Positions 5,491 to 28,968 of a DNA stretch of 29,844 nt are shown here, one piece after another. The stretch covers positions 1 through 29,844 of IMG/VR virus record IMGVR_UViG_3300042893_001274, one strand, 5' to 3'. The DNA is from a virus. Within the stretch, counting starts at the first letter, position 1, and each line of letters opens with the position of its first letter. The notes under the pieces are model-generated. The model was given only the letters and a program-made list of their open reading frames with translations. It searched no databases and was not told the DNA's origin. The position numbers and the translations under genes are program-made.

Positions 5491-5508
5491 TTTCTAGAGT
5501 ATAGAGAA

Positions 5509-5535: not shown

Positions 5536-5554
5536 CTTCGTAAGAACTATTCTA

Positions 5555-10993: not shown

Positions 10994-11010
10994 ATGATTA
11001 TATATTAAAA

Positions 11011-11018
11011 GTTACACT
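11011..11018 (-). promoter_or_regulatory. Candidate late promoter octamer AGTGTAAC
   Basis: In the 58-nt gap between the terminase stop and the portal ATG the minus strand carries AGTGTAAC followed by a very AT-rich leader. It is one base different from AGTGTAAA and lies in one of the few intergenic gaps of the late block. Confidence 0.42.
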
Positions 11019-11051
11019 AAAAGTATCAAAAGTACTTTTATGACTTTCGTT

Positions 11052-15955: not shown

Positions 15956-15959
15956 ATTA

Positions 15960-17043: not shown

Positions 17044-17049
17044 AAAGTG

Positions 17050-17838
17050 TTAAACCATCTCTTCAATAATCTGCAATCCTCCTTTAGCTACTCCGTTGGA
17101 ATCAACAGAGAGACTTTGATTAGATAAAACGCCAGCTACCGAAAAAACAGTAGCGTCCGACATTGTAATTGTGCAGGTTACTGTTGTGTTTGGTTGATAA
17201 TCAGATAGCCAATCTGCATTGGACAGTCCGTTTACTTGCAAAGATTTTGTAACTTTAGAAACGCTAACTTTTTCGGGATATTCCGAGCCAATAACAAAAT
17301 TTGGAACTCTATCAACTTGAATATCGAAAGAAATATTCTCGTACTGTGAGATTGGAGTAGTGGAAAAGCTTGGAGCAGAGAATTGAATTGTTGTTGCTCT
17401 TAAAGGCGAGAGCAAAACCTCAGAAGAAGCTTGCTGTTCAGTATAAGCGTAAACTCCTGTGCCATTAGCTAATCCGTAAGAGTCGAATTGTAAAGCGGCA
17501 GACGCAACTTTCCAAGGTTCAAACGATGCGGAAAAACTTTTTAAATAACATTTACTAAATTGGTAATCTGGAACTTTGATTGCTGATCCGCCAACAGAAT
17601 CTCCAGTTAAATTGATGATTTTGTTGATTTCTCCAGAAACTAAAAGAACATTTGCGGAAATACTTGAACTTTTTGGGCCAGTTTGAATGTAGTAATCCAT
17701 CTCCTGACCAATTCTTCTAACTCTTTTTAAACTAGTTGTGTTTGATGCGCTTAAACTAGTTGCGTACAAGATGTTGTCGGTAGCGCTATCAGCGTTCGTA
17801 AAATACGCCCTGATTTTATCGTAAGTAACGTAAGGCAT
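17050..17838 (-). CDS. Putative tail tube protein
   Basis: This 262-residue beta-rich protein opens with MPYVTYDKIRAYFTNADSAT and contains a tail-tube-like pattern: a YFKSF-like strand in DYQFSKCYLKSFSASFEPWK, followed by alternating strands with NISFDIQVDRVPNFVIGSEY and closing TVTCTITMSDATVFSVAGVL. Tube proteins that form the hexameric inner tail tube often have this length and composition. The assignment is by pattern and by the presence of the other virion genes downstream. A different tail or neck protein remains possible. The ATG is 4 nt after the stop of the upstream membrane protein. Confidence 0.65.
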   Translation of the reverse strand: MPYVTYDKIRAYFTNADSATDNILYATSLSASNTTSLKRVRRIGQEMDYYIQTGPKSSSISANVLLVSGEINKIINLTGDSVGGSAIKVPDYQFSKCYLKSFSASFEPWKVASAALQFDSYGLANGTGVYAYTEQQASSEVLLSPLRATTIQFSAPSFSTTPISQYENISFDIQVDRVPNFVIGSEYPEKVSVSKVTKSLQVNGLSNADWLSDYQPNTTVTCTITMSDATVFSVAGVLSNQSLSVDSNGVAKGGLQIIEEMV

Positions 17839-17842
17839 CTGA

Positions 17843-18208
17843 TTATTTTACACTTTTTTTGAACTGTTTAAGATCAGCGTCGTCAATCATTGCTAGCCGT
17901 TTCAAGAACTTGACATTTTCCAGTTTCACGTTCTGCATAACAAGACGACTGCCGCCAGTAATGATTCCTTCTTCGTTTACGTCGTAGATAAACAAAGTTG
18001 TTGACATTAAGCCGATTCTCACAATTCTCGCTGGGCTTTTTGTGCCGTCCCAAAACATTAAAACGTCATCTTCTTTTAATCCAGATGTCATTTTAAAGAT
18101 AATGCTCTTGACAATGTTGATGATAAATTCTTTAAACAGCAACGAAGCAACGCCCGCTACCAAAAGTACCGAATTTTGAGAAATAAAAGAATTCATCTGA
18201 TCTTCCAT
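17843..18208 (-). CDS. Small membrane protein with MscS-like beta segment
   Basis: This 121-residue protein has a hydrophobic N-terminus (SVLLVAGVASLLFKEFIINI) likely to span the membrane, then a segment LKEDDVLMFWDGTKSPARIV and IGLMSTTLFIYDV that resembles the beta domain of small mechanosensitive-channel proteins. It ends in a basic helix. It is the first gene of the leftward block, with AGTGTAAA 7 nt before the ATG. The MscS resemblance is short and may be only structural; function is unknown. Confidence 0.75.
   Translation of the reverse strand: MEDQMNSFISQNSVLLVAGVASLLFKEFIINIVKSIIFKMTSGLKEDDVLMFWDGTKSPARIVRIGLMSTTLFIYDVNEEGIITGGSRLVMQNVKLENVKFLKRLAMIDDADLKQFKKSVK
17847..17854 (-). promoter_or_regulatory. 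AGTGTAAA copy overlapping gene end
   Basis: The minus-strand octamer AGTGTAAA spans the last sense codons of the 17843-18208 gene, just before its stop, and lies 8 nt upstream of the ATG at 17838. As it also encodes Ser-Val-Lys it may be coincidental; it is listed because it repeats the motif seen in non-coding gaps. Confidence 0.3.
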
Positions 18209-18215
18209 GCTATTT

Positions 18216-18223
18216 TTTACACT
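18216..18223 (-). promoter_or_regulatory. Candidate late promoter octamer AGTGTAAA, start of the leftward block
   Basis: The minus-strand octamer AGTGTAAA lies in the 52-nt divergent gap between the leftward late block and the rightward block that begins at 18261. Its end is only 7 nt before the ATG at 18208, so if it is a -10-type element the transcript would be nearly leaderless. Confidence 0.48.
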
Positions 18224-18260
18224 TTAACTGGAAAAACCACCTCTTGAACTACTATAACTT

Positions 18261-18509
18261 ATGAACGGAAAAGGATCAAAACGTCGCCCATCTTCTATCT
18301 CTTCTGACGAATTCGCAAACAGAATTGATGATATTTTTAAAAAGAAAAATAAGGTGCAAGTGCCTGTTCTTCAAGACAAAGACGGCTACTTCATTGTAAT
18401 TCCAAAAAAAATGCTCAAAAAGGCTGGACTTAATGAAGGAGATAGTGTTGATTTCACTCCATCAGGAGACGGATACCTCGTTTCCAAAACTTTAAAACCA
18501 AATAAATAA
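18261..18509 (+). CDS. AbrB/SpoVT-like DNA-binding protein
   Basis: This 82-residue protein has two parts. The N-terminus MNGKGSKRRPSS followed by DEFANRIDDIF matches a small-protein theme seen in many phages. The C-terminal ~50 residues (VPVLQDKDGYFIVIPKKMLK, then LNEGDSVDFTPSGDGYLVSK) form a swapped-hairpin AbrB/MazE-like DNA-binding domain with the typical IPKKMLKKAGL-type core. It is the first gene of the rightward block and so is placed to act as a regulator, perhaps of the divergent gap beside it. No ribosome-binding site is obvious. Confidence 0.82.
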   Translation: MNGKGSKRRPSSISSDEFANRIDDIFKKKNKVQVPVLQDKDGYFIVIPKKMLKKAGLNEGDSVDFTPSGDGYLVSKTLKPNK

Positions 18510-18513
18510 TTTT

Positions 18514-19074
18514 ATGGGAATGTTCGACACAATTATCGTTAGCGACACTCTTCCTTACTCAGAGGAAATGATTTGCCTTGGCCTAAACTCTAATAACGGC
18601 GATTTTCAAACTAAAGATTTGATCAATTGCTTAGAAACTTATATTATCCAAGGCAAAAAACTCTTTGTACGAAAATACGAAGTGAATAAATTTGTCGAGC
18701 CAGAAAAGCCATCTGGCCCTTGGGATTTCGGCCATATGGAAAGAAGCGGAGAGTATCTTGAACAAGTTAACCATCACGGCAAGATCGTTTTCTACACTTA
18801 TTACCGAGACGTTCTTGATCTTTGGGACTGCTCCGTAGATTACGAAGCTACTTTCACTCACGGCGTTTGCGATAGCATTGTTTTGGCGAAATTCACTAAA
18901 GAATCAAACAAAGAGAGACTAGAAAATGAGAAGAGATGGAAAGAGCAGATCGCTAAAAACCATAATCTTTGGTACAATAAGTATATTTTTTATACTCTCA
19001 CTTACCGCAATTTCTCTCGCTACAAATATAAGTTTTTTACAGCAATCGCTAACTTTTTTCACAAAATCGCATGA
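18514..19074 (+). CDS. Conserved phage protein (MGMFDT family), unknown function
   Basis: This 186-residue protein opens MGMFDTIIVSDTLPYSEEM and has FQTKDLINCLETYIIQGKKL near residue 30, a pattern recognisable in small phage proteins of unknown function. The C-terminus is basic and aromatic (YNKYIFYTLTYRNFSRYKYK) and might touch a membrane. It lies 4 nt after the AbrB-like gene and overlaps the next gene by 4 nt. Confidence 0.8.
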   Translation: MGMFDTIIVSDTLPYSEEMICLGLNSNNGDFQTKDLINCLETYIIQGKKLFVRKYEVNKFVEPEKPSGPWDFGHMERSGEYLEQVNHHGKIVFYTYYRDVLDLWDCSVDYEATFTHGVCDSIVLAKFTKESNKERLENEKRWKEQIAKNHNLWYNKYIFYTLTYRNFSRYKYKFFTAIANFFHKIA

Positions 19075-19289
19075 CCTTAACAACTAACAAAGAAATCTAC
19101 AAAGGAGACATCGTTGCAATGACTGCTGCGGTGTATCAAGAACTCGCAAATCGAGACATTCGTTTTAATTCTGTGCGAGAAGATGATGAATTTTACGATT
19201 TCTTATCACAAAGTCTTGACATTTGGTTTAAAACCGACCACTCTAAAAATTATGAACTCAAAAACTCTCTCAGAGATTCCTCTCTTTAG
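19071..19289 (+). CDS. Small hypothetical protein
   Basis: This 72-residue protein has no recognised domain and is acidic in its second half (SVREDDEFYDFLSQSLDIWF). The ATG overlaps the stop of the preceding gene by 4 nt, a translational-coupling arrangement that supports it as a real gene. Confidence 0.65.
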   Translation: MTLTTNKEIYKGDIVAMTAAVYQELANRDIRFNSVREDDEFYDFLSQSLDIWFKTDHSKNYELKNSLRDSSL

Positions 19290-19539
19290 CGCAGATTTGG
19301 CCGATAGTCTCACATCAACTAGCCTCAAATGGCATTATGAGAATACAATGCAAAATGTTAAAATTTTGCAGTCTAAAAAGAAATTAGAAAGTTGGGAAAC
19401 AGAGGATTTGGAATACAACCTCACTCTCGCGGGTGCTCTTCGCATAGTTTGTGATTATTATGGAGTAGAAACTAATGAAACCAAAGAAAAATCTAAAAAA
19501 CAAAAAACCAGCAAAGTTAAAGCTTCCAAAAAAGTTTGA
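19252..19539 (+). CDS. Small hypothetical protein with basic tail
   Basis: The preferred ATG at 19252 gives 95 residues starting MNSKTLSEIPLFSADLADSL, overlapping the upstream gene by 38 nt; an ATG at 19183 would give 118 residues but a far larger overlap. The middle is helical and the last 15 residues are Lys-rich (KSKKQKTSKVKASKKV). No function is apparent. Confidence 0.65.
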   Translation: MNSKTLSEIPLFSADLADSLTSTSLKWHYENTMQNVKILQSKKKLESWETEDLEYNLTLAGALRIVCDYYGVETNETKEKSKKQKTSKVKASKKV

Positions 19540-19711
19540 AGGCCACATTAACGCGCTAAAAGCTTACTCTACGGAAACGCAAGAGAAGCTCTTGTCCGAT
19601 ATTTTAATGACTGCTTATGTAATCGGTATTGAATCTACCGTTAGCGAAGAATATAAAACATTTTTAAAGTATATCGTAGATGGCGACAAAGAAATGGTTG
19701 AATTCGTATGA
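19475..19711 (+). CDS. Small hypothetical protein with basic N-terminus
   Basis: This 78-residue protein begins MKPKKNLKNKKPAKLKLPKK and continues with two predicted helices. It overlaps the previous gene by 65 nt, where both frames encode Lys-rich sequence, and overlaps the metallophosphoesterase start by 4 nt (ATGA). The 3' coupling supports it as real. Confidence 0.65.
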   Translation: MKPKKNLKNKKPAKLKLPKKFEGHINALKAYSTETQEKLLSDILMTAYVIGIESTVSEEYKTFLKYIVDGDKEMVEFV

Positions 19712-20343
19712 AAATTATTTGTATTTCAGACACTCATGGACTTCACGGTCATTTAAAAGGTAAGATTCCAGATGGAGATATGATTATCCACTCTGGAGAC
19801 TTTTGTAATGGCGGCGATTACTTTGATTGCGTCGAGTTTTTCGCATGGTTCGGCTCTTTGCCGCACAAATACAAGCTTGTTATCGCTGGTAATCATGATA
19901 AATGGATGGAAAAAGCAAGCCGTTCTGAAATCAACGCGATCATACCGCCGGGCATTCACTATCTTCAAGATGAAGGCGTCACAATTGAAGGTTTAAACTT
20001 TTGGGGATCGCCAGTTCAACCAGAATTCTTTGATTGGGCGTTTAATCGCAAACGCGGATTGGCTATTCAAGAACATTGGAACTTGATTCCAAAAAATACT
20101 GATGTTTTGATTACTCATGGTCCACCTATGAGTATTCTTGACAAAGCTCCGGGCAATGTTCACGTTGGATGCGCCAACTTATTCACTACAATCACTGAAA
20201 ACCTTAAACTTAAGCTTCATGTTTTTGGCCATATCCACAATGGCTACGGCATTGAAGTTAAAAACAACACTATGTTTGTTAATGCAGCTATCTGCACTGA
20301 ACAATACAAACCAATTAACACTGCTAGAACAATCGAACTCTAA
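19708..20343 (+). CDS. Calcineurin-like metallophosphoesterase
   Basis: This 211-residue protein has the complete metallophosphoesterase motif set: ISDTHG (Asp8, His10), HSGDF (Asp31), AGNHDKW (Asn62, His63), ITHGPP (His137) and FGHIHNGYG (His175, His177). These coordinate two metals for phosphoester hydrolysis. The length and the DTHGLHGHL start resemble the MPPED/239FB-like group of compact phosphoesterases. The substrate cannot be told; nucleotide or RNA-end processing is plausible in a phage. It overlaps the upstream small gene by 4 nt and lies within the rightward operon. Confidence 0.93.
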   Translation: MKIICISDTHGLHGHLKGKIPDGDMIIHSGDFCNGGDYFDCVEFFAWFGSLPHKYKLVIAGNHDKWMEKASRSEINAIIPPGIHYLQDEGVTIEGLNFWGSPVQPEFFDWAFNRKRGLAIQEHWNLIPKNTDVLITHGPPMSILDKAPGNVHVGCANLFTTITENLKLKLHVFGHIHNGYGIEVKNNTMFVNAAICTEQYKPINTARTIEL

Positions 20344-20348
20344 ATAAT

Positions 20349-20948
20349 ATGACAGCAGAAGAATACATTTCACAAGGTAAAGAAAAAACAGAAAAGAAAG
20401 TATGGTTTTGGCCTACTGGGTGGTACGTTGCGCCATACGCTCTAGGTTTTAGAGAGTGGGACAAGTATTACGCTTACTTGTCCGTTCAGTATCCTGTTCA
20501 GCGTTTCCTAAGAGAAACTTATGATGATTGCTATTATTCAGTTGGTTCCAATTACCGATTTATTAAGCGCAAAATCAAGAATTTCTTGCGTCATCCACGC
20601 AAAGAGTTTCGTAACGCTGTGTTTGATAAGAGCGGAGAAATGGATATGGTCGAAATTATTGTTTTGTTTCATCTTGCTTGCGTTGTTGAGCTAGTTGAAA
20701 GAGAAAAATATCTTGAACATATTTGTTCAGAGACTGAAAAGGAAATTCAATTCGTTAAACAACTTAAAGAAGCTTACGATTACGCTAAAGGTGGACGGCA
20801 AAAGCTTTTAGACGATATTCACAATCACGCTTTGAGTTTAGAGAATGATAATTTCACAGCTTACATTGAAATGGACAAACACCTTAACGAATGCGACACA
20901 GTTTTGTGCGACTTTGTGGTTAAAAACCGCGAAAAGTTTTGGACCTAA
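20349..20948 (+). CDS. Conserved phage protein, unknown function
   Basis: This 199-residue protein begins MTAEEYISQGKEKTEKKVWF and is rich in aromatic residues in the first half (WFWPTGWYVAPYALGFREWD). A central basic segment (FIKRKIKNFLRHPRKEFRNA) precedes a long helical, mixed-charge part. No catalytic motif was recognised. It lies 5 nt after the phosphoesterase and 1 nt before a small membrane protein gene. Confidence 0.78.
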   Translation: MTAEEYISQGKEKTEKKVWFWPTGWYVAPYALGFREWDKYYAYLSVQYPVQRFLRETYDDCYYSVGSNYRFIKRKIKNFLRHPRKEFRNAVFDKSGEMDMVEIIVLFHLACVVELVEREKYLEHICSETEKEIQFVKQLKEAYDYAKGGRQKLLDDIHNHALSLENDNFTAYIEMDKHLNECDTVLCDFVVKNREKFWT

Positions 20949-20949
20949 A

Positions 20950-21156
20950 ATGAAAAGCTTAGTTTTTAGATTAATTTGGGCGCTATTAGCTATCCCAGCC
21001 TTTATTGTGCTGGGAGGCTTAACATTCTTGATTCAAATGACCTTTAACTCTAAAGAAGCCGGGCGTGACTTTGTTAAAGGCTTAAAAGAATTGTTTTTTT
21101 ATATTAAAAATGGTTCTCAGCCACCTTATGAAGAGGATTTGAATGACGCAAACTGA
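20950..21156 (+). CDS. Small membrane protein
   Basis: The ATG at 20950 gives 68 residues with one strong hydrophobic helix at about residues 5-30 (VFRLIWALLAIPAFIVLGGL) and a charged tail. It starts 1 nt after the preceding stop and overlaps the HNH endonuclease gene by 14 nt. Longer frames beginning at 20845 lie inside the upstream gene and are rejected. Role unknown. Confidence 0.72.
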   Translation: MKSLVFRLIWALLAIPAFIVLGGLTFLIQMTFNSKEAGRDFVKGLKELFFYIKNGSQPPYEEDLNDAN

Positions 21157-21679
21157 TACAATAGTTGATACTTTAGTGACGCATCAAACTGTAACACATA
21201 AAACTTGTCGTGCTTGTAAATTGCTTAAGCTTTTCTCTGATTTCTATGTGAATAAGGCAGGTCGATTTGGTCTTAGGGGAAGTTGTAAAGAATGCCATGA
21301 TAAAACTCCACATAGAAATTTAAAAACGAGGAGAGATGTAGCAAGATGTTTAAAAATTAGTTATATTAACCATTTAGGCGGCGCATGTATCAGATGCGGA
21401 CATTCTGTTCCGGAAGCAATAGACTTTCATCACATTGTCCCGTCAGAGAAAAAGTTTGAGATAGGAGAGTGTAGAAGAAAATTAGATGATGAAGAACTTA
21501 TAAAAGAACTACAGAAATGCGCCCCATTATGCAAGAACTGCCACGCCGAATTTCACGCTGGAAGATTTGATTTAGAACCATACCTACACAAAATACCAAA
21601 ATTTAATGAAAACACTGAAAAACAGGATAGTACTGGGGATGACCTTGTACTTGGGATTCAAATTAGCAACTTTGATTGA
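21143..21679 (+). CDS. HNH endonuclease with zinc-binding cysteines
   Basis: This 178-residue protein has an N-terminal zinc knuckle (Cys22, Cys25, Cys48, Cys51), typical of a small family of phage HNH proteins with a KxCxxCK.L..FxxF pattern. A second cysteine pair follows (Cys82, Cys85), then the HNH core: AIDFHH (94-97), LCKNCHAEFH (129-138). It would cut double-stranded DNA, as a homing or restriction-like nuclease. The sequence after residue 150 is low in motifs. The start overlaps the membrane protein gene by 14 nt. Confidence 0.9.
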   Translation: MTQTDTIVDTLVTHQTVTHKTCRACKLLKLFSDFYVNKAGRFGLRGSCKECHDKTPHRNLKTRRDVARCLKISYINHLGGACIRCGHSVPEAIDFHHIVPSEKKFEIGECRRKLDDEELIKELQKCAPLCKNCHAEFHAGRFDLEPYLHKIPKFNENTEKQDSTGDDLVLGIQISNFD

Positions 21680-21711
21680 GCTATTTTTAATATTTTTAAT
21701 TAAGGCATAAC

Positions 21712-22233
21712 ATGAACAAATACATATTCGTTGACTTAGATGAAACATTAATCCATACTTATGGATTATTCTCCAAATCAGTTATGCCCGGTTATCAAAA
21801 GATAACTTTAAGCTCAAAAGAGCATTATAATACGAAGGTTAGAGAATGTTCTGTCGCGTTTCTTGAGCAAGCTCGTAAGAAGGCTAAGGTTTTTATGCTC
21901 ACAGTAGCTACAAGAGACTATGCTCTTGCCATGAACAAAGCCTTTTCCTTTGGATTTGAGGCCGAAGATATATACTCTCGTGAGGATATTCGCGGGCGCA
22001 CTGGCAAAATTCCTCAAATTGAACCGGGCGCTGTTTGGTTGTTCGATAACCTTCCAGAAGACTATAACGAAGAAAAATGTCGCTATTTGGCGCATTTGGG
22101 GCCGTTGAATTACGTTCAAGTTTCCGAATTTGACCATTATTCAGGCTCTTCTACTACTCTTCCTGATTATACGGTAGATAAAGAAGATATCTCTAATGAG
22201 TTGTTGGCGCTTTTAGCGGAAAAGGTTAAGTAA
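21712..22233 (+). CDS. HAD-like phosphatase
   Basis: This 173-residue protein has the haloacid-dehalogenase catalytic motifs: FVDLDETL (nucleophile Asp8, acid Asp10), Thr64 in MLTVATRD (motif II), Lys99 in GRTGKI (candidate motif III) and WLFDNLPED (motif IV, Asp112). The DLDET form resembles the FCP/NIF-type and 5'-nucleotidase-like branches. It has no obvious cap domain. Substrate unknown; nucleotide dephosphorylation is a common role for phage HAD proteins. It is preceded by an AT-rich gap of 32 nt with TTAAGG before the ATG. Confidence 0.88.
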   Translation: MNKYIFVDLDETLIHTYGLFSKSVMPGYQKITLSSKEHYNTKVRECSVAFLEQARKKAKVFMLTVATRDYALAMNKAFSFGFEAEDIYSREDIRGRTGKIPQIEPGAVWLFDNLPEDYNEEKCRYLAHLGPLNYVQVSEFDHYSGSSTTLPDYTVDKEDISNELLALLAEKVK

Positions 22234-22242
22234 AGTATTTAT

Positions 22243-22947
22243 ATGGCGCTAACTAAAAAAGCAAAACAAACAAATCAAAAAAAAGAGTTAATTGTGACGG
22301 CAGAAATGCTTGCTGAAATTAGACTCTTAGTAAAAAGAATCGGCGGAATAGAAAACTTCAACTATGCAATGGATGTTTGGGAGTATAAGGGGCCAAAAAA
22401 AAGGATTGAAGATGTTATTTCTCCAGAACAATTAGCTAAGATGTATTATCATGACGAAGATGGAAATTTGTTTTTAAAAAACAACAGTGGTAATAAAAAG
22501 GCTGGTGATAAAGTTGGCTTTTTAAAACGTCAGGGATATATAGTAGCCAGTATAAAATTTGAGGGTTATTATTTTACGGTTTTTCTTAATAAAATTATTT
22601 TTTGTTTACATAATGGTCGTTGGGCCAAAAAAGGCTATAAGGTAGATCATATAAATGAAGATAAAACAGATAATAGACCTTGCAATCTAAGAGAAAGTAC
22701 TAATTCTCAAAACGCCAGTAACAAATCATTGTACGAAAGTAACAAATCAGGGGTAAAAGGTGTTTTTGTGCGTTCTATTTCTGATGATCGCGTGCGTGTT
22801 GATGCTTGTGTTTCTTGTAATGGGAAGAAATATTTCAAGTCGATGACTGTTAAAAAAGAATTTGTTGAAGCTACAATTCAAATACTTAAAGCTTGGCGAG
22901 ATGAAATAGGTCGAAAATTACACGGAGAATTTTTCAACGAAGGTTAA
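22243..22947 (+). CDS. HNH homing endonuclease, AP2-like DNA-binding type
   Basis: This 234-residue protein has an N-terminal helical region, an HNH_3-type core (VDHINEDKTDNRPCNLREST followed by NSQNASNKSL), and then a SGVKGVFVRSISDDRVRVDA segment resembling the AP2-like DNA-binding strand module of phage homing endonucleases. The spacing HNH then SGVKGV is characteristic of free-standing homing enzymes that copy themselves between phages. It is followed by another gene of this class 3 nt later. Confidence 0.9.
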   Translation: MALTKKAKQTNQKKELIVTAEMLAEIRLLVKRIGGIENFNYAMDVWEYKGPKKRIEDVISPEQLAKMYYHDEDGNLFLKNNSGNKKAGDKVGFLKRQGYIVASIKFEGYYFTVFLNKIIFCLHNGRWAKKGYKVDHINEDKTDNRPCNLRESTNSQNASNKSLYESNKSGVKGVFVRSISDDRVRVDACVSCNGKKYFKSMTVKKEFVEATIQILKAWRDEIGRKLHGEFFNEG

Positions 22948-22950
22948 TTT

Positions 22951-23547
22951 ATGAATCAAGAAAATCAACAGCCAGAAGAGCTATCTATGTCTTTTCAAGA
23001 AAAAGATGCGATTTTTCGTTATAAAAGAAGCCAGCATATGGATATAGACGAGTTTGTAAAGCTTTATTTTGAATACAAAAATAGACCAACTCCAGAAGAT
23101 TTGTCGGAGTCATTTATCGCTGATTTTGAAAAAGGCACATTAACTAACAGAAATTCAGGCAAAGAGATTACTAGTATATGGAACGGATACAAAAGGACCT
23201 CGTTTAAAAGAAAAAATCACCATGTTCATACTTTGCTATATACTATGTATCACAAGCGTTGGCCTGAAATAAATATGCTTGTAGATCATAGAGATAAAAA
23301 TCCCTTAAATAACTCTATATCTAATTTATATGAAGTTACTATGAAGCAAAATAATAACAATAAAAAACTAAAAAATTATAAGTACGGAATATTCATATTA
23401 ACGTTTAAAGATGGATCTAAAAAATACCGTGTTAAAAGATGCGGCAAACATTTAGGTTATTTTGAAACACATGAAGAAGCTATGCTCGTTTCTTTAGCCT
23501 ATGATAAACAGCTAGAAGAAGAAGGAATTAAGCCAAAGGCTAGGTAA
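22951..23547 (+). CDS. HNH homing endonuclease, second copy type
   Basis: This 198-residue protein carries the core LVDHRDKNPLNNSISNLYEV followed by NNNNKKLKN, the same class as the upstream endonuclease but clearly divergent, and a basic C-terminal module (GSKKYRVKRCGKHLGYFETH) with a FETHEEAMLVSLAYDKQL helix like the AP2-type partner domain. It ends the rightward gene block and is followed by a long non-coding region, so it may have invaded the operon end. Confidence 0.9.
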   Translation: MNQENQQPEELSMSFQEKDAIFRYKRSQHMDIDEFVKLYFEYKNRPTPEDLSESFIADFEKGTLTNRNSGKEITSIWNGYKRTSFKRKNHHVHTLLYTMYHKRWPEINMLVDHRDKNPLNNSISNLYEVTMKQNNNNKKLKNYKYGIFILTFKDGSKKYRVKRCGKHLGYFETHEEAMLVSLAYDKQLEEEGIKPKAR

Positions 23548-23685
23548 AATTCTCCCCCGCCCGGAAAGTGAGTTTTTGTTCCTATTCTTTTAGATATTTT
23601 CTCATTTTCTCAGAAAAGGGTGGGGGGATAGTGTTTCTTTTAGGTATGTTTATATACAGGTAAGATATATAAGCTAATCAAGGGT

Positions 23686-23720
23686 AAGTAAAGCAAGTAA
23701 ATGTAAGTGAGATAAGTAAA
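23686..23720 (+). repeat. Phased AAGTAAA-like repeats
   Basis: AAGTA/AAGTG copies begin at 23686, 23695, 23705 and 23714, spaced 9, 10 and 9 bp, close to one helical turn. They could bend DNA or bind a protein on one face. Confidence 0.6.
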
Positions 23721-23806
23721 GATAGCCTTGGGGGTAATTAAATTAAGATGGTTTAAATTGATGGTAGAGTGAGGAATTACCATCCCCCCCCGCGCCCTAT
23801 ACAATT

Positions 23807-23945
23807 CGCTATATACTTTTTTATATAAGGGCGGGGGGTGTATATAGCGCTATATACTTTTTGATATAGTGCTATATCATTTTTGATACAACGCTATATC
23901 ATTTCCTCGCGCCACTATAGAATTCGCTATAGTGTTTTTCGCATC
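23807..23945 (+). repeat. Iteron-like repeats, about 22-bp spacing
   Basis: Units beginning CGCTATA or TGCTATA lie at 23807, 23848, 23870, 23892 and 23925, spaced 41, 22, 22 and 33 bp. The first three continue into AC/CATTTTTTGATA-like sequence, the fourth into CATTTCCTCGCG and the last diverges to CGCTATAGTG. The two 22-bp intervals equal two helical turns, as in iterons or operator arrays. Confidence 0.6.
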
Positions 23946-24080
23946 CTACCAAAAAAACAAAAAACGTGTCAAGCGAATTTCTAAAAATAAAAAAATAGTT
24001 CGTGCGATTTTTTTCTTGAATTCGGCAAATAAAAATGCACGCTGTTTTTCGTTACCAACAACAACACAAAAAAAACACAT

Positions 24081-24611
24081 ATGAAAACAGCCACCGCCAC
24101 CGCCACCGCAACCGCAACCGCAACCGCCACCTTGTCACCAATCGCCGCCGCACTTTTGAGCGTGCCCGCCGGTCAATTTGTTGGCGTCTCATGGAGCCGC
24201 CCGATGAAAACCCGCAAAGGAGTTTCCGACATCATCACAAAATCAGTCCGCTCAACGGTTCAAGTCGGCGCAAAGCACGACAACCGCCAATCGGTCATCG
24301 AGGCCCGCGCCAATGGCGACGCGCCCGCAGAGAATCAGGGTTTACCGTGGGGCAAATGGGTTGACGGCATGGAGAATCGTTTGATAGAGCACAAGGGAGC
24401 TTTCTATCTCCGCCTTTACCCCGTGAACAACAGCGACGGCACGCCCCGCGCTTGCAAAACCGTTTTCCGTCTCAACGGGAAAAGCGTCTCCCGTGCCGTG
24501 ATCGAGTCCCTTTGCCTCGCGTCTGAATTTGCCGAGAAAAAGGAATTTGCTTGTTATACGCTAGGGGAAAAAAATTTGATTGCGGTGCGGAGCGTGCGCC
24601 GCGTAAGCTAA
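24081..24611 (+). CDS. Unknown protein with Thr-Ala repeat N-terminus
   Basis: This 176-residue protein begins MKTATATATATATATATATL, a dipeptide repeat made by near-identical 6-nt units (ACCGCC/ACCGCA), then LSPIAAALLSV, a hydrophobic stretch. The rest is a mixed alpha/beta protein with SWSRPMKTRKGVSDIITKS and LYPVNNSDGTPRACKTVFRL. No domain was recognised. The base composition is clearly more GC-rich than the genes to the left, and the leader is A-rich without a ribosome-binding site. It ends 24 nt before a strong terminator. Confidence 0.75.
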   Translation: MKTATATATATATATATLSPIAAALLSVPAGQFVGVSWSRPMKTRKGVSDIITKSVRSTVQVGAKHDNRQSVIEARANGDAPAENQGLPWGKWVDGMENRLIEHKGAFYLRLYPVNNSDGTPRACKTVFRLNGKSVSRAVIESLCLASEFAEKKEFACYTLGEKNLIAVRSVRRVS

Positions 24612-24637
24612 CGCAAAGCAACGCAACGCAACCAACG

Positions 24638-24665
24638 ACCCGCCCCGAAAAGGGCGGGTTTTTTC
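24638..24665 (+). terminator. Intrinsic terminator (copy A)
   Basis: An 8-bp stem ACCCGCCC/GGGCGGGT (24638-24659) with loop CGAAAA is followed by T6. The 30 nt from 24636 to 24665 are identical to the terminator at 28630-28659. Confidence 0.93.
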
Positions 24666-24668
24666 GTG

Positions 24669-24782
24669 CCCCTACCCCTACCCCTACCCCTACCCCTACC
24701 CCTACCCCTACCCCTACCCCTACCCCTACCCCTACCCCTACCCCTACCCCTACCCCTACCCCTACCCCTACCCCTACCCCTA
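24669..24782 (+). repeat. CCCCTA array, 19 exact copies
   Basis: A perfect tandem array of CCCCTA, 114 bp, begins 4 nt after the T-tract of the terminator. The complementary strand is TAGGGG repeated, with strong potential for G-quadruplex formation. Frames through it are low-complexity shadows. Confidence 0.95.
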
Positions 24783-24790
24783 CGCATCAC

Positions 24791-24837
24791 GCGCACACGC
24801 GCACACGCGCACACGCGCACACGCGCACACGCGCACA
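24791..24837 (+). repeat. GCGCACAC array, about six copies
   Basis: Nearly six copies of the 8-bp unit GCGCACAC follow the CCCCTA array after a 8-nt spacer. The tract is strictly alternating purine and pyrimidine, the pattern that favours Z-DNA, and ends in an A-run. Confidence 0.9.
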
Positions 24838-24936
24838 AAAAAAAGAGGCGAGCCGCTAGGCCCGCCCCGTTTTATCGCTTGGCCCTTTGCTTTGATAGCA
24901 TAAACCAGAGCACCACCAAAAAGACGATAAAAGAAA
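24838..24936. other. Gap between repeat arrays and gp88-like gene, no gene seen
   Basis: With the arrays before it this makes a stretch of about 325 nt without a convincing gene. A minus-strand frame with a short hydrophobic segment (FFYRLFGGALVYAI) crosses it but runs into the repeat and lacks support. Confidence 0.5.
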
Positions 24937-25653
24937 TCACGCGCCGCCCCCCGTTTGAATGACGAAGCCGCTTGCGTCCTTTTTCGCTTTTCCCTTCGCA
25001 TACAACGCAACCACAGCGCCGCCCCGCTTGTCTAAAAAACGCAGATCCGACTTGTCACCGTCCACCACTTCAAACCCTTTCCACGTTTGCGGGTAATTCG
25101 GCGAGGAAAACACCGCCGCAACGTTGCCGCCCGCAGCCAACACTGCGAGCGCGTCCGTTTCGTTTGATTCAGAGCGCGAAAACGTCAAATAATAATTCGA
25201 CGGCATTTCCCCGCGAGCGTGCGCGAGCGCACGCGAAACGCTTTTCGTGTAATCATAAAATTGCACGGACGGAAATTTTTCGAAAATCCCCAAACGTTCC
25301 CAGGGAACGTCGCTCGTCCCGTTCAGCCGCACGCAATACCCTAGCCCCAATTTCGCCGCCCGTTTCATGCCGCGCGCGATGTCCTTTTCTAACTGTTCAA
25401 AAAATGCTTTTTTATCCGTAAAAAATAAACGTGTCTTCCGAATTCGACCGAGGCGAACGTTTGACATCCGACCCCGCCCCGCCGTGAAAAGGCAGGACAA
25501 GAGACAACCCGCCGAAGCATTCACGCAAAGATTTCCAAATCCTCCTTCATTGGCCGGAGCCAAGTATAAAATGCCCGTCAAGTAATTAAGCAAAGCGCCT
25601 TTTGACGTTTTCGCGTCCGCGCCGAAAGCAAGCAAGGGAAGTGTTTTTTTCAT
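24937..25653 (-). CDS. gp88-domain protein
   Basis: This 238-residue protein matches the phage gene-product-88 pattern by eye: a cysteine-containing opening GFGNLCVNASAGCLLSCLFT (Cys43, 50, 54) followed by AGRG, then RKTRLFF, VRLNGTSDVPWE (about 108-119), SVQFYDYTKS, NYYLTFSRSESN, a GGNVAAVF strand, VVDGDKSDLRFLD and AKGKAKKDASGFV. The family is found in mycobacteriophages and other phages or plasmids; its function is not established. It is the only minus-strand gene in the 24-28.6 kb segment. The upstream leader is A/T-rich with a TTGGCACGCCAA palindrome. Confidence 0.85.
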   Translation of the reverse strand: MKKTLPLLAFGADAKTSKGALLNYLTGILYLAPANEGGFGNLCVNASAGCLLSCLFTAGRGRMSNVRLGRIRKTRLFFTDKKAFFEQLEKDIARGMKRAAKLGLGYCVRLNGTSDVPWERLGIFEKFPSVQFYDYTKSVSRALAHARGEMPSNYYLTFSRSESNETDALAVLAAGGNVAAVFSSPNYPQTWKGFEVVDGDKSDLRFLDKRGGAVVALYAKGKAKKDASGFVIQTGGGA

Positions 25654-25740
25654 CGCAGGAAATAAACCACACCCAACGAAAAAAAACGACTAAAAAATAA
25701 AAAAAAATCTTTGCTAAAAAAACGAGGTTGGCACGCCAAA

Positions 25741-25800
25741 ATGTTCCACGCTGCGCGAAATGTTCCACGAAAATGTTCCACGGTGCCGAAATGTTCCACG
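25741..25800 (+). repeat. Four ATGTTCCACG repeats (parS half-site-like)
   Basis: Exact ATGTTCCACG copies begin at 25741, 25760, 25773 and 25791. TGTTCCACG is the left half (plus one base) of the parS-like palindrome at 27476-27491. They lie in the divergent gap upstream of the gp88-like gene. Confidence 0.75.
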
Positions 25801-25813
25801 CCGTTTATTGAAG

Positions 25814-25830
25814 TTGAGACCTAATCTCAA
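25814..25830. repeat. Palindrome TTGAGA-CCTAA-TCTCAA
   Basis: A 6-bp perfect inverted repeat with a 5-nt spacer directly before the second CCCCTA array. A related palindrome with an 11-nt spacer precedes the fifth array at 28670-28692. Confidence 0.65.
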
Positions 25831-25834
25831 AACG

Positions 25835-25999
25835 CCTACCCCTACCCCTAAAAATTTCCTACCCCTACCCCTACCCCTAAAAATTTTCCTACCCCTACCC
25901 CTAAAAATTTTCCTACCCCTACCCCTAAAAATTTTCCTACCCCTACCCCTACCCCTAAAAATTTTCCTACCCCTACCCCTAAAAATTTTCCTACCCCTA
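25835..25999 (+). repeat. CCTACCCCTA / AAAATTTT composite array
   Basis: Seven units of CCTA plus one to three CCCCTA are separated by AAAATTT(T). The full units are 24 or 30 bp long, differing by one CCCCTA copy. It is C-rich on the plus strand like the other arrays. Confidence 0.92.
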
Positions 26000-26005
26000 G
26001 ATTTG

Positions 26006-26069
26006 TTATTAGGTATTAACACGTTCACCTTTCATGTTTGTTATTAGAACAGAACTCATTCACCTTTAC
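26006..26069 (+). repeat. 29-bp repeat, two copies
   Basis: Units at 26006-26034 and 26041-26069 share TTATTAG and TTCACCTTT with the four units at 28833-28955. They immediately follow the CCCCTA array. Confidence 0.75.
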
Positions 26070-26167
26070 TATTTGCCGAAACTCTTGTCAAGCTTTTTTC
26101 TCAAAAAATAAAAAATAAATCTAAAAAAAAACTTGCAACCACCACGAAAAAAAAATAGTTTTTAGCC

Positions 26168-26401
26168 ATGACCAACATTCACGGAAAAAAAACCCTCTTG
26201 TTAAACGGCGAAAAAATTGAAGTTAATTTTTTCAACGACGTACTTGGCTATACTAATCTTGGCGCAGCAAACGGCTGGAAAACTCGCCCCGCCGTTTTGT
26301 CCGACGTAACCGACTTGAAAGAAATTCGGCTTTCTATGCACGAATCCCTTTACATTTCGCCATCTAAGAAATTAGCTTTCTGGGCTGACTCGTCTGGTTA
26401 A
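26168..26401 (+). CDS. Small hypothetical protein
   Basis: This 77-residue protein (MTNIHGKKTLLLNGEKIEVN, later a LSMHESLYISPSKKLAFWAD segment) has beta-rich character and no recognised domain. The leader is A-rich without a ribosome-binding site, as in the other genes of this segment. A short CCCCTA tract follows its stop directly. Confidence 0.65.
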   Translation: MTNIHGKKTLLLNGEKIEVNFFNDVLGYTNLGAANGWKTRPAVLSDVTDLKEIRLSMHESLYISPSKKLAFWADSSG

Positions 26402-26406
26402 ATTTT

Positions 26407-26421
26407 CCTACCCCTACCCCT
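26407..26421 (+). repeat. Short CCTACCCCTACCCCT tract
   Basis: Fifteen bases of the repeat, preceded by AATTTT as in the composite array, occupy the gap between the 26168 gene and the next possible start at 26430. Confidence 0.85.
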
Positions 26422-26429
26422 CAAAAAAA

Positions 26430-26594
26430 ATGAACGAATACGAACTCGCTGAAATCTTTATCGCAAACAACTTTTCCCGTTACCAAACCATTCAACACCT
26501 CAACAAAAATGAAATCCCTTTGCCTTCTCCTCGCGTTTTTTTCTGGGCTGAACTCATTGCACAGCAAATCGGTTGTAACAGTCAGCGCAACTGA
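26430..26594 (+). CDS. Possible 54-residue protein overlapping the wall-hydrolase gene
   Basis: The frame MNEYELAEIFIANNFSRYQT continues to a stop inside the SleB-like gene, overlapping it by 86 nt in another frame. The A-rich leader resembles those of neighbouring genes, and the sequence is not low in complexity. It may be real or only the leader of the next gene. Confidence 0.4.
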   Translation: MNEYELAEIFIANNFSRYQTIQHLNKNEIPLPSPRVFFWAELIAQQIGCNSQRN

Positions 26595-26946
26595 GATTGT
26601 CGCCGCAACTTTGATTGCCGAGGCTGGCGGCGAGCGCGATTTTCGCGCAATGTCTGCTGTTGCCGAAGTGATTTACAACCGTTCAATCTCGCGCAAACTT
26701 TCGCCAATGCAAGTTTGTTTGCAGCGCAAACAGTTCTCTTGTTGGAACGGCAAAGATGTTGAAGCTGAGATCAACAAAGCAAAGAAACACAAGAAATGGT
26801 CAAACGCTCTCAAAATTGCTCAAAATCTTGGCTCCACTAATTACACGAAAAACGCACAGTTTTATCACACGACAAAAATAAATCCATCTTGGAATAAAAA
26901 AATGCTTGCAACAGTTACAATCGAAAATCATATTTTTTACAAATGA
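26509..26946 (+). CDS. SleB-type cell wall hydrolase, secreted
   Basis: This 145-residue protein has a signal peptide-like start (MKSLCLLLAFFSGLNSLHSK, about 20 residues) and a compact Hydrolase_2/SleB domain: AATLIAEAGGERD (candidate catalytic Glu38), AVAEVIYNR, VCLQRKQFSCWN and AQFYHTTKINPSWN. The family cleaves peptidoglycan glycan strands. In a phage it may act as the endolysin or an entry enzyme, and the signal peptide would carry it across the membrane without a canonical holin. It overlaps the next gene by 4 nt. Confidence 0.88.
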   Translation: MKSLCLLLAFFSGLNSLHSKSVVTVSATEIVAATLIAEAGGERDFRAMSAVAEVIYNRSISRKLSPMQVCLQRKQFSCWNGKDVEAEINKAKKHKKWSNALKIAQNLGSTNYTKNAQFYHTTKINPSWNKKMLATVTIENHIFYK

Positions 26947-27221
26947 GAATCACACCCGCAGAAATCGGAAACAATTACAAAACCGGAACTATCTTTGGCT
27001 TCACCATCGACGAAATTTCAAATGCTCTCGGCTTTCAACCTACTGCGAGCATAGATGGAAAATGTTGCGCCGTCTGGTATTTCACAGCGGAATTAGATGG
27101 TCAAAACCACGACTGCTCAATCTGGGACTGGAAAGGATCTAGTTCTGAAAAATACTTTTCTTGCTTCATGCCCGACGAAATTCGGGACGAGATGGAGAAA
27201 TACATAAAACAAAAAAACTAA
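26943..27221 (+). CDS. Small conserved-looking protein, unknown function
   Basis: This 92-residue protein (MRITPAEIGNNYKTGTIFGF) contains LGFQPTASIDGKCCAVWYFT and CSIWDWKGSSSEKYFSCFMP, a pattern of small phage or host proteins with no known role. Its ATG overlaps the hydrolase stop by 4 nt, which supports co-translation. Confidence 0.72.
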   Translation: MRITPAEIGNNYKTGTIFGFTIDEISNALGFQPTASIDGKCCAVWYFTAELDGQNHDCSIWDWKGSSSEKYFSCFMPDEIRDEMEKYIKQKN

Positions 27222-27228
27222 ACGAAAC

Positions 27229-27420
27229 ATGAAAACATCCGTTAAAGAAGATACAATGAGCATCTGCATGATCGCTCAAAACGAAAAAGATCGAAGGCTC
27301 CTTACTCGTATGGAGGCGAAGATTGATAAAATCAAAGGACATTCTATATCTTTAAATTATATGAACCACCCTAGAAATCAACGAGTAACTAAACTATTCA
27401 TTCCAATTCAAAAAAGTTAA
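27229..27420 (+). CDS. Small basic hypothetical protein
   Basis: This 63-residue protein (MKTSVKEDTMSICMIAQNEK) starts 7 nt after the previous stop and ends 29 nt before a strong terminator, so it is likely the last gene of its operon. A start at the internal Met at codon 10 is possible. Confidence 0.6.
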   Translation: MKTSVKEDTMSICMIAQNEKDRRLLTRMEAKIDKIKGHSISLNYMNHPRNQRVTKLFIPIQKS

Positions 27421-27449
27421 TCTTTAAATAAATAATTCATCCAAAATTT

Positions 27450-27476
27450 GCGAGGCGTAACTGCCTCGCTTTTTTT
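27450..27476 (+). terminator. Intrinsic terminator
   Basis: Stem GCGAGGC/GCCTCGC (27450-27456, 27463-27469) with loop GTAACT, followed by T7. It ends the operon 26168-27420. Confidence 0.93.
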
Positions 27477-27491
27477 GTTCCACGTGGAACA
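27476..27491. promoter_or_regulatory. parS-like 16-bp palindrome TGTTCCACGTGGAACA
   Basis: This is a perfect palindrome and fits the bacterial ParB-binding consensus TGTTNCACGTGNAACA at every fixed position. It begins at the last T of the terminator. No ParB gene is in the window. Confidence 0.65.
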
Positions 27492-27543
27492 AATTTTCCT
27501 ACCCCTACCCCTACCTACCCCTAATCAAAATTTTCCTACCCCT
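27491..27543 (+). repeat. CCTACCCCTA / AAAATTTT tract
   Basis: Two short C-rich tracts (27498-27523, 27535-27543), each preceded by A3-4T4, directly follow the parS-like site. Confidence 0.9.
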
Positions 27544-27566
27544 GTTTTATTTTACCAGAATAAAAC
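27544..27566. repeat. AT-rich 8-bp inverted repeat
   Basis: GTTTTATT (27544-27551) pairs with AATAAAAC (27559-27566) across a 7-nt loop, immediately after the repeat tract. Confidence 0.6.
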
Positions 27567-27609
27567 ACCGTTGTCAAAATAAATAATTTCTAAAAAGAAA
27601 AATACCGGG

Positions 27610-27637
27610 TTGACTTTGCGCCATTTTCTGATATAAG
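27610..27637 (+). promoter_or_regulatory. Candidate sigma-70-type promoter
   Basis: TTGACT (27610-27615) and TATAAG (27632-27637) are 16 nt apart. A transcript starting near 27644 would have a leader of about 170 nt before the ATG at 27814. Confidence 0.5.
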
Positions 27638-27771
27638 CGCGCCGCGCAATTTTCCCAACAAAAAATCAAAGCACTTGTCAACACCTTCCGCAAAAATACC
27701 CAAAGATTCTTTTCAACTAATTCGTCAAAAAGGCTTGCACGGTCTAAACAGATACTTCAGTTTTTCCTCAT

Positions 27772-27790
27772 CGACTAGATCACCTAGTCG
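27772..27790. promoter_or_regulatory. Operator-like inverted repeat CGACTAG-N5-CTAGTCG
   Basis: A perfect 7-bp inverted repeat with a 5-nt spacer (ATCAC) ends 23 nt before the ATG of the DUF932 gene. It could be a repressor site or a leader hairpin. Confidence 0.55.
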
Positions 27791-27813
27791 CAACCAATAA
27801 AACACACAAAAAA

Positions 27814-28611
27814 ATGGAAACTGTAAATGTCCCCCAAGTTAATCAGAAGCGCGAGTTGAACCTGCACGTTGCAGGAGGCAGAAACGTCGCCGTAGAATTT
27901 GCCGATATCGGCAACGTCCCCTTGCCCGAAACTACCCGCAGCTTCGTGCCAGTGAGCCACAATCGCATGGTCGAAATTTTCCGCGACCAGCTCGCAGAAA
28001 AAGGCCTGAGCGTAATCAAAGAACACCACACCCTTGCAAAATATGGTCAAAATTACTTTGGCTTGTTTCAGATCGACATGAAAAAAGACGGCGCTACCTC
28101 TGGCACCGTTGTCGGCTTGCGTAACTCGCACTGCAAAGATTTTCGCGCTGGCATTTGCGCTGGCAACGCACCTTTCGTCTGCGACAATCTTGTTTTCCAC
28201 AACGAAATTGTGATCGGTCGCCGCCACACCACCAACATCATGCTCGACCTACCCAAGAAAATGGGCGAAGCGCTTGGTAAGCTTGGCGAGATGTGGACGA
28301 ACCACGAGACCCGCGTCAAAAAATACACGAACACGAATCTCGACGACGAGACCGCTGGAAACCTCATCTTGCGCTCTTATCGGTCTGGCGCAATCGGCAA
28401 AAATATGATCGCCGATGTGCTCGACCAGTGGGACAAGCCCTTGCACGAAGAGTTTGCACCGCGCAACCTCTGGAGCCTTCACAATGCCTTCACCGAAATC
28501 TACAAGGGGAATTTGAACGCTCTCCCGATTCGGTCCTCGATCCTTCACAGCGTCCTCGACCCATTCGCAGGAATCAACGTTGTTTTGCCTGCCGAGATCG
28601 GCGCTAACTAA
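27814..28611 (+). CDS. DUF932 family protein
   Basis: This 265-residue protein has the DUF932 pattern: YVPVSH-like opening at FVPVSHNRMVEIFRDQLAEK, a FGLFQIDM strand, VVGLRNSHCKDFRAGICAGN and APFVCDNLVFHNEIVIGRRH, then a mainly helical C-terminal half. The family is common on phages, plasmids and integrated elements and has no proven function. The gene has its own probable promoter and operator-like repeat, an A-rich leader without a ribosome-binding site, and its own terminator. It is more GC-rich than the late block. Confidence 0.88.
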   Translation: METVNVPQVNQKRELNLHVAGGRNVAVEFADIGNVPLPETTRSFVPVSHNRMVEIFRDQLAEKGLSVIKEHHTLAKYGQNYFGLFQIDMKKDGATSGTVVGLRNSHCKDFRAGICAGNAPFVCDNLVFHNEIVIGRRHTTNIMLDLPKKMGEALGKLGEMWTNHETRVKKYTNTNLDDETAGNLILRSYRSGAIGKNMIADVLDQWDKPLHEEFAPRNLWSLHNAFTEIYKGNLNALPIRSSILHSVLDPFAGINVVLPAEIGAN

Positions 28612-28631
28612 TCGCAGAGATCGCCAAAGCG

Positions 28632-28659
28632 ACCCGCCCCGAAAAGGGCGGGTTTTTTC
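28632..28659 (+). terminator. Intrinsic terminator (copy B)
   Basis: Stem ACCCGCCC/GGGCGGGT with loop CGAAAA and a T6 tail. It is identical over 30 nt (28630-28659) to the terminator after the 24081 gene. Confidence 0.93.
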
Positions 28660-28669
28660 TGCTCCACCG

Positions 28670-28692
28670 TTGAGACTGAGAACCAATCTCAA
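28670..28692. repeat. Palindrome TTGAGA-N11-TCTCAA
   Basis: Inverted repeat arms as at 25814-25830, with a longer spacer, just before the fifth array. Confidence 0.6.
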
Positions 28693-28696
28693 TTCA

Positions 28697-28825
28697 CCTA
28701 CCCCTACCTACCCCTACCTACCCCTACCTACCCCTACCTACCCCTACCTACCCCTACCTACCCCTACCTACCCCTACCTACCCCTACCTACCCCTACCTA
28801 CCCCTACCTACCCCTACCTACCCCT
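28697..28825 (+). repeat. CCTACCCCTA array, 12.9 copies
   Basis: A near-perfect tandem array with a 10-bp period, distinct from the 6-bp period of the 24669 array but built from the same CCCCTA core. The G-rich strand is minus. Confidence 0.95.
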
Positions 28826-28832
28826 GTTTTTA

Positions 28833-28955
28833 TTATTACTTATTAACGCATTCACCTTTCGTTATTACGTATTAAGTAGTTCACCTTTCGTTATTAAGTA
28901 TTATCTAGTTCAGCTTTCGTCTTTTAGTATTAAGAGATAAGTGGTTCACCTTTTG
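28833..28955 (+). repeat. 29-bp repeat, four copies
   Basis: Units 28833-28861, 28862-28890, 28891-28919 (29 bp each, head to tail) and 28920-28955 (36 bp) share TTATTA-N-GTATTAA and TTCACCTTTCG, with the third carrying TTCAGC. They lie between the CCTACCCCTA array and the tRNA genes. Confidence 0.85.
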
Positions 28956-28968
28956 TCTCTAAAGAAAT

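What the first reader, a model, noticed from the sequence alone, without database searches (positions are those of the whole stretch)
24669..28825. CCCCTA/CCTACCCCTA arrays fill the gaps of one 4-kb segment
The arrays at 24669-24782, 25835-25999, 26407-26421, 27491-27543 and 28697-28825 share a TACCCCTA core, are all C-rich on the plus strand, and lie at transcription-unit boundaries, three of them just after a terminator. I saw none in the other 25 kb. The units differ (6 bp; 24/30 bp with AAAATTTT; 10 bp), so this is not one duplicated block. The TAGGGG strand could form G-quadruplexes. Possible roles are transcription insulation, replication pausing or a recombination substrate.
Basis: partly seen in the sequence, partly recalled or inferred. 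Interest (0 to 1): 0.75.

Follow-up and report, generated by a model that had tools for sequence, protein, structure and literature searches.

The report
Phage spacer repeats shared with bacteria
A bacterial virus carries long C-rich repeats in the gaps between genes of one small region, where a close relative carries a different repeat, and one family of bacteria carries the same motif beside its own genes; what the repeats do, if anything, is not known.

Summary
Five CCCCTA/CCTACCCCTA arrays (49 TACCCCTA, all on the plus strand, against 0.21 expected) lie only between genes of one 4-kb module, and nowhere else in a 75.6-kb record of the same phage. They are not an assembly accident: two records carry all five, and a third record and an about 90-98.5% identical strain carry array 1 up to a contig end. 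The only difference between the two full records is 13 against 10 copies in the last array. They are lineage-specific: a syntenic relative (terminase 98% identical) has none, and three of its matching spacers hold TGTTCCACG repeats; 0 of 50 searched related records have CCCCTACCCC. The same core forms 18 hairpins in a distant relative, and short, nearly always intergenic arrays in one Opitutae family (38 of 79 genomes), where 90 of 103 examined arrays point outward toward the genes, much like the published GGGNATC repeats. The phage does not follow that rule (1 of 5), and only 2 of 5 arrays fit a strict G-quadruplex motif. Best reading: a simple-sequence repeat that spread among permissive spacer slots by slippage and spacer recombination. 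A Rho-loading role (C-rich, G-free RNA) remains open. Host unproven.

The parts
24669..24783 (+). Array 1: (CCCCTA) x19.2, no G on the plus strand
   Evidence: same in G001; record G285 (L170, L338) and the strain L184 end inside it
25835..25999 (+). Array 2: 24/30-bp units CCTACCCCTACCCCTAAAAATTTT
   Evidence: same in G001
26407..26421 (+). Array 3: 2.5 copies, 5 bases after a stop codon
27498..27543 (+). Array 4: CCTACCCCTA-type units
28696..28825 (+). Array 5: ACCTACCCCT x13; x10 in record G001
24637..24660 (+). Terminator-like hairpin before array 1; its 30-base block (24636-24665) is identical to 28630-28659
28631..28654 (+). Terminator-like hairpin before array 5
27450..27469 (+). Terminator-like hairpin before array 4
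25814..25830 (.). TTGAGA..TCTCAA inverted repeat before array 2
28670..28692 (.). TTGAGA..TCTCAA inverted repeat before array 5
26002..26071 (.). Two TTATTA..TTCACCTTT repeats after array 2
28829..28957 (.). Four TTATTA..TTCACCTTT-like repeats (29-bp period) after array 5; similar repeats stand at this place in the relative G290
25742..25800 (+). Four TGTTCCACG repeats spaced 19/13/18, the repeat type found in the matching slots of G290
27476..27491 (.). TGTTCCACGTGGAACA palindrome before array 4
24081..24611 (+). p176 gene before array 1; no Pfam or PHROGs family at E 0.1; no match in G290
24937..25653 (-). Gene product 88 family gene (PF17338)
26168..26401 (+). p77 gene, upstream of array 3; no match in the relatives' pieces searched
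26509..26946 (+). Cell wall hydrolase gene (PF07486)
27814..28611 (+). DUF932-like gene (PF06067, 21.8 bits, below the 23-bit cut-off)

Best explanation
The arrays are a simple-sequence repeat family (core CCTACCCCTA) that spread, in one phage lineage, into spacer slots of a module whose spacers are already built from exchangeable repeat parts. They grow and shrink by slippage, move between spacers by copying or recombination of spacer blocks, and persist because the room between a gene's end and the next gene's control region tolerates them. Their common orientation follows the C-over-G bias of the plus strand there. Shown: lineage specificity, a different repeat in the matching spacers of a close relative, a copy-number difference between two assemblies, mosaic spacers, strand bias. 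Inferred: slippage and ectopic recombination as the mechanisms, tolerance rather than function, and an origin linked to an Opitutae host.
For: Window and G001 are identical over 29.8 kb except for three 10-bp units in array 5. The syntenic relative G290 has no CCTACCCC; three of its matching spacers hold TGTTCCACG repeats, and the 29-bp repeats beside the tRNA genes are kept. 0 of 50 related records (50 sent of 80 found) have CCCCTACCCC; 7 of 7 other records found by DUF932 have no CCTACCCCTA. The 28-base unit of array 2 and three units of array 5 were found in viral contigs only in G001. The 30-base terminator block at both ends of the segment is identical, while G290 has another terminator after DUF932. 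Three genes between slots (p176, p77, p63) have no match in G290. Without the arrays the skew is -0.11 to -0.17 over 24-29 kb, and the minus-strand gene gp88 is also C-rich on plus at third positions.
Against: Array 1 keeps its place after the same terminator in a strain about 90 to 98.5% identical, although the bases just before the array differ, so it has persisted. All arrays lack G on one strand and four of five exceed 40 bp, which selection could also explain. The 13-against-10 difference could be an assembly effect. The same core in a distant relative, in other phages and in a bacterial family is more than undirected slippage predicts. The strand bias is weaker in the matching part of G290, so it is not a fixed property of the module.
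Confidence: 0.5

Rival explanations
1. Transcription insulation by RNA: the arrays give C-rich, G-free RNA after stop codons and terminators, which loads Rho and stops read-through.
For: All five arrays have no G on the plus strand, and four of five follow a plus-strand gene; three stand after a terminator-like hairpin.
Against: In the bacterial family with the same motif, arrays in the half of a gap next to a stop codon are mostly G-rich in the sense strand (32 of 44, my sum). Array 2 lies in a divergent gap and array 3 is 15 bp. The relative G290 does without them.
Confidence: 0.2
2. Recombination cassettes: repeats in spacers give homology for swapping genes between related phages, like the promoter-terminator cassettes (PeSLs) of T4-type phages.
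For: Spacers are mosaics of shared parts; p176, p77 and p63 have no match in G290 while their neighbours are kept; the spacer after DUF932 differs from that of G290 in terminator and repeat.
Against: 0 of 50 searched relatives hold the motif, so it offers no homology with most partners; no recombination junction inside an array was seen.
Confidence: 0.15
3. G-quadruplexes of the TAGGGG strand pause RNA polymerase or the replication fork.
For: G4Hunter 1.6 to 2.7 on the minus strand; arrays 1 and 5 hold 4 and 3 strict motifs, the only strict motifs in the window.
Against: Arrays 2, 3 and 4 do not meet the strict motif; orientation is constant in all gap types.
Confidence: 0.1
4. Assembly artefact or foreign telomere-like contamination.
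For: Two records end inside array 1; TAGGGG looks telomere-like (recalled).
Against: The arrays are internal to the phage module in two records that are identical apart from copy number; a third record and a diverged strain carry array 1 in place.
Confidence: 0.02

Closest known systems
GGGNATC-type quadruplex-forming intergenic repeats of Xanthomonas and Nostoc (Rehm et al. 2015, PMC4692102)
   Same: Short G-rich unit, mostly intergenic, variable copy number; the Opitutae family follows a matching orientation rule (90 of 103)
   Different: Unit here is 6, 10 or 24/30 bp, not 7. The phage arrays are confined to 4 kb, longer, all in one orientation, and do not follow the rule (1 of 5). In the Opitutae family arrays in divergent gaps are not under-represented (29 of 103 against 75 of 310 gaps), unlike in the paper
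Cyanobacterial short tandemly repeated repetitive (STRR) sequences (recalled; one search listed only two papers holding the term)
   Same: C-rich tandem repeats between genes
   Different: Heptamers in cyanobacteria (recalled); here hexamers and longer units in a phage
Promoter early stem-loop cassettes (PeSLs) of T4-type phages (seen only as described in passages of PMC4503421)
   Same: Repeated parts in spacers beside terminators, between genes that differ among relatives
   Different: Simple tandem arrays; no promoter consensus shown; the phage is not shown to be T4-like
GGGGTAGG..CCTACCCC hairpins of the distant relative G281
   Same: Same core; one hairpin stands beside a p176-like gene
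   Different: 18 inverted hairpins, 10 of them outside ORFs by a crude caller, instead of direct arrays (plus one run of direct copies)

Membership tests
GGGNATC-type intergenic quadruplex repeats | Short G-rich unit in tandem | tested here: met
   phage; Opitutae family; unit 6/10/24-30 bp, not 7
GGGNATC-type intergenic quadruplex repeats | Spread over the whole genome | tested here: not met
   Phage: confined to about 4 kb of 75.6 kb. Opitutae family: on many contigs
GGGNATC-type intergenic quadruplex repeats | Over-represented in non-coding DNA | tested here: met
   Phage: 5 of 5 arrays, non-coding share 0.33. Family: 214 of 222 CCCCTACCCC outside my gene calls
GGGNATC-type intergenic quadruplex repeats | G-rich strand antisense upstream of genes and sense after stops | tested here: not met
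   Phage: 1 of 5. Opitutae family: 90 of 103
GGGNATC-type intergenic quadruplex repeats | Four G-runs able to form a quadruplex | tested here: inconclusive
   2 of 5 phage arrays meet the strict motif; no biophysics
PeSL cassettes of T4-type phages | Composite promoter plus stem-loop in spacers | tested here: inconclusive
   Terminator-like hairpins at 3 of 5 arrays; promoter scan 10 found against 7.4 in shuffles, uninformative
PeSL cassettes of T4-type phages | Lie between genes that turn over among relatives | tested here: met
   p176, p77, p63 without match in G290; one close relative only
Simple sequence repeat (micro- or minisatellite) | Tandem units with copy-number variation | tested here: met
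   13 against 10 copies in array 5; two assemblies only

The most novel reading that the evidence does not exclude
CCTACCCC/TAGGGG is a gene-border signal shared by a family of Opitutae and by unlike phages that infect them: the bacteria use short outward-pointing arrays, one phage lineage uses hairpins, another uses long direct arrays, and all are read by the same host factor (for RNA 3' ends, Rho, or DNA).
Probability: 0.12. Interest if true: 0.75.

Novelty: new variant of a known kind. Interest (0 to 1): 0.45.

Why it matters
It is a case in which matching spacers of two closely related phages hold different repeat families, so repeat turnover can be followed in a small genome. It gives a sequence-based lead, so far unproven, to a host group for uncultured phages. 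It also adds a bacterial family (Opitutae) with dispersed G-rich intergenic repeats that follow an orientation rule described before in Xanthomonas and Nostoc, a rule whose cause is unknown.

Tried and rejected
Coding repeats: ORFs run through the arrays, but array 5 has a 10-bp unit, array 2 has one 23-bp copy, and the matching spacers of G290 hold other DNA; rejected. Chimera or contamination: rejected.

Host by phage genes in the Opitutae family: GP88 and terminase, 0 of 79 genomes each, with no positive control. A 19.6-kb DNA search gave 8 matches in 5 of 79 genomes: 7 over the low-complexity start of p176, and one at 5507-5538 that looks on inspection like a terminator hairpin. The terminase profile over 387 genomes of the phylum gave 11 weak partial matches (20 to 28 bits) in 10 genomes. 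GC of 0.65 in the fetched family loci against about 0.40 in the phage also speaks mildly against. TGTTCCAC and TTCACCTTT are not strongly enriched in those loci (23 against 13.8 and 5 against 1.3 expected).

A three-unit pattern gave 44 stretches. Of the 43 other than G001, the longest ORF over the main array is on the C-rich strand in 33 (my reading of the listing, a crude test), so most look like coding Pro-Thr repeats; two of the other 10 are G285 and L184. The array-2 unit was not found in genome contigs. The 57 genome loci include 48 outside the Opitutae family, in many taxa; I did not test whether these are coding. The reversed control pattern rang 8 times in the relative G296; on inspection these are scattered single copies in what look like coding repeats. 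Two single CCTACCCC occur in G307. Rfam gave the two tRNAs and one match below its gathering score, antisense to a tRNA.

Literature: in the listings I saw no report of these arrays; subscription journals were mostly not searchable. Papers seen: PMC4692102, abstract and two sections; PMC7015867, abstract; PMC4503421, passages; PMC4177764 and PMC5348500, reference lines only; Arbiol 2010 is not held and, like Comeau 2014, was seen only as a citation.
Full report
The arrays are real. Tandem Repeats Finder and the raw sequence place them at 24669-24783, 25835-25999, 26407-26421, 27498-27543 and 28696-28825. TACCCCTA occurs 49 times, always on the plus strand, against a mean of 0.21 in 100 shuffles. 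All five lie outside the genes that I accept; the five gaps make up 33% of 24081-28967. Three follow a terminator-like hairpin; array 2 is in a divergent gap; array 3 is a short run just after a stop codon, in a gap of 29 bases (107 if a 54-aa ORF read at 26430 is not a gene).

They are not an assembly accident. The window is an IMG/VR virus record. A 75,627-base record, G001, is identical to it over all 29.8 kb except that array 5 has 10 instead of 13 copies. A third record, G285, is identical where compared (10685-24760) and ends inside array 1; a diverged strain (L184; stretches of 90, 92 and 98.5% identity) has the same terminator followed by at least 12 copies of CCCCTA, again at a contig end. 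So two records show all five arrays and two more show array 1. In G001 the motif is confined to the same 4 kb.

They are specific to this lineage. I could send 50 whole records, and 0 of 50 hold CCCCTACCCC; many are short fragments that may not cover the module. G290 is the informative one: its terminase is 98% identical and it covers the module in the same order (GP88 79%, hydrolase 66% and 95% in two pieces, DUF932 65%). In its gp88-hydrolase gap, its longer stretch before DUF932 (which holds other ORFs) and its gap between DUF932 and the tRNA genes, TGTTCCACG repeats and a CCGGGCCGGGCCCGG block stand where the window has CCCCTA arrays; in the first of these the window has TGTTCCACG repeats as well as the array. 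The 29-bp TTATTA..TTCACCTTT repeats next to the tRNA genes are kept. p176, p77 and p63 have no match in G290. Seven other records found by DUF932 have no CCTACCCCTA.

The spacers are mosaics. The 30-base terminator block at 24636-24665 is identical at 28630-28659; the TTGAGA..TCTCAA inverted repeat and the TTCACCTTT repeats occur beside arrays 2 and 5; TGTTCCAC occurs beside arrays 2 and 4. G290 has a different terminator after DUF932. This is what copying of spacer blocks would leave, though no breakpoint was observed.

Orientation. All five arrays are C-rich on plus whatever the direction of the neighbouring genes. Without the arrays, the segment still has a negative GC skew (-0.11 to -0.17 per kb, 24-29 kb) after a positive one (0.10 to 0.21) in the 3 kb before, and gp88, on the minus strand, is C-rich on plus too at third positions. 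Strand composition can therefore account for the orientation without transcription; the bias is weaker in the matching part of G290 (0.00 to -0.09). Arrays 1 and 5 fit the strict quadruplex motif; arrays 2, 3 and 4 do not.

The same core elsewhere. A scan of 84,980 species genomes for three-unit arrays gave 57 loci; 9 of them lie in 8 genomes of one family, and their record titles name Opitutae, Opitutus or Verrucomicrobia/Verrucomicrobiota. The other 48 lie in many taxa. In that family 38 of 79 genomes hold CCTACCCCTACCCC, six of them once and one 51 times; the reversed control rang in 4. In the class, 10 of 188 genomes match, nine of them once, fewer than match the reversed control (about 35, my count), so outside the family the motif is at background. 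In 60 loci of 10 family genomes (652 kb, all chosen around arrays) my own gene caller puts 214 of 222 CCCCTACCCC between genes. Of 110 arrays there, 103 lie between two called genes, and 90 of the 103 point outward: the C-rich strand runs toward the nearer gene. By my sums, 58 of 59 arrays next to a gene start and 32 of 44 next to a gene end fit. Of 22 close pairs, 20 are inverted. Rehm et al. describe a matching placement for GGGNATC repeats and leave the function open (PMC4692102, abstract and two sections). The gene caller is home-made, so the counts are approximate. The phage arrays do not follow this rule: 1 of 5.

A distant relative, G281 (terminase 38%, p176 32%, DUF932 20%), has 18 GGGGTAGG..CCTACCCC hairpins in a region of small genes, and a run of the G-rich strand. 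With a crude ORF caller 10 of the 18 lie outside ORFs; the other 8 overlap ORFs of 45 to 99 aa, which may or may not be genes. Other phage records carry repeated near-perfect palindromes with the same core and gave no protein match to our phage in the stretches held; two records with a single hairpin, L479 and L486, do share GP88 and other proteins with it. This recurrence is the best reason not to call the arrays meaningless.

Host. Nothing beyond the shared motif ties the phage to the Opitutae family: no GP88 or terminase in 79 genomes, without a positive control, no convincing DNA match, no close terminase in 387 genomes of the phylum.

Judgement. I favour a simple-sequence repeat spreading among permissive, exchangeable spacer slots (0.5), over Rho-type insulation (0.2), recombination cassettes (0.15) and quadruplex pausing (0.1). 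The kind is known; the setting, a phage whose spacers hold another repeat family than those of its close relative, and the bacterial family are the additions.

Noticed in passing
25742-25800; L432 and L433 (G290), L440 (G303), L442 (G307): TGTTCCAC repeats spaced about 19/13/19 bases, on one strand within each cluster, in several related phages: looks like a protein-binding element.
   Followed up: partly
27476-27491: TGTTCCACGTGGAACA palindrome, resembling a parS site (recalled resemblance).
   Followed up: no
24783-24837: A second tandem array, (CGCACACG) x6.8, abuts array 1.
   Followed up: no
23797-23939: Block of ATATAGCGCTATAT-like palindromes in a long gap, close to where the GC skew changes sign; possibly a replication origin.
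   Followed up: no
L465, L466, L472, L482: Other phage records with several palindromes of the form TAGGGGGTAGGGGG(T/A)CCCCCTACCCCCTA or close to it; their place relative to genes was not tested.
   Followed up: partly
L334 (G281), 34.8-48.4 kb of the record: 18 GGGGTAGG..CCTACCCC hairpins in a distant relative, 10 of them outside ORFs by a crude caller.
   Followed up: partly
24081-24160; L184 about 7981-8060: Low-complexity TATATA start of p176, encoded by a hexamer repeat, longer in the strain L184.
   Followed up: no
293-879; L150: Long 9/18-base repeats, collagen-like in the reading frame, in tail-region genes.
   Followed up: no
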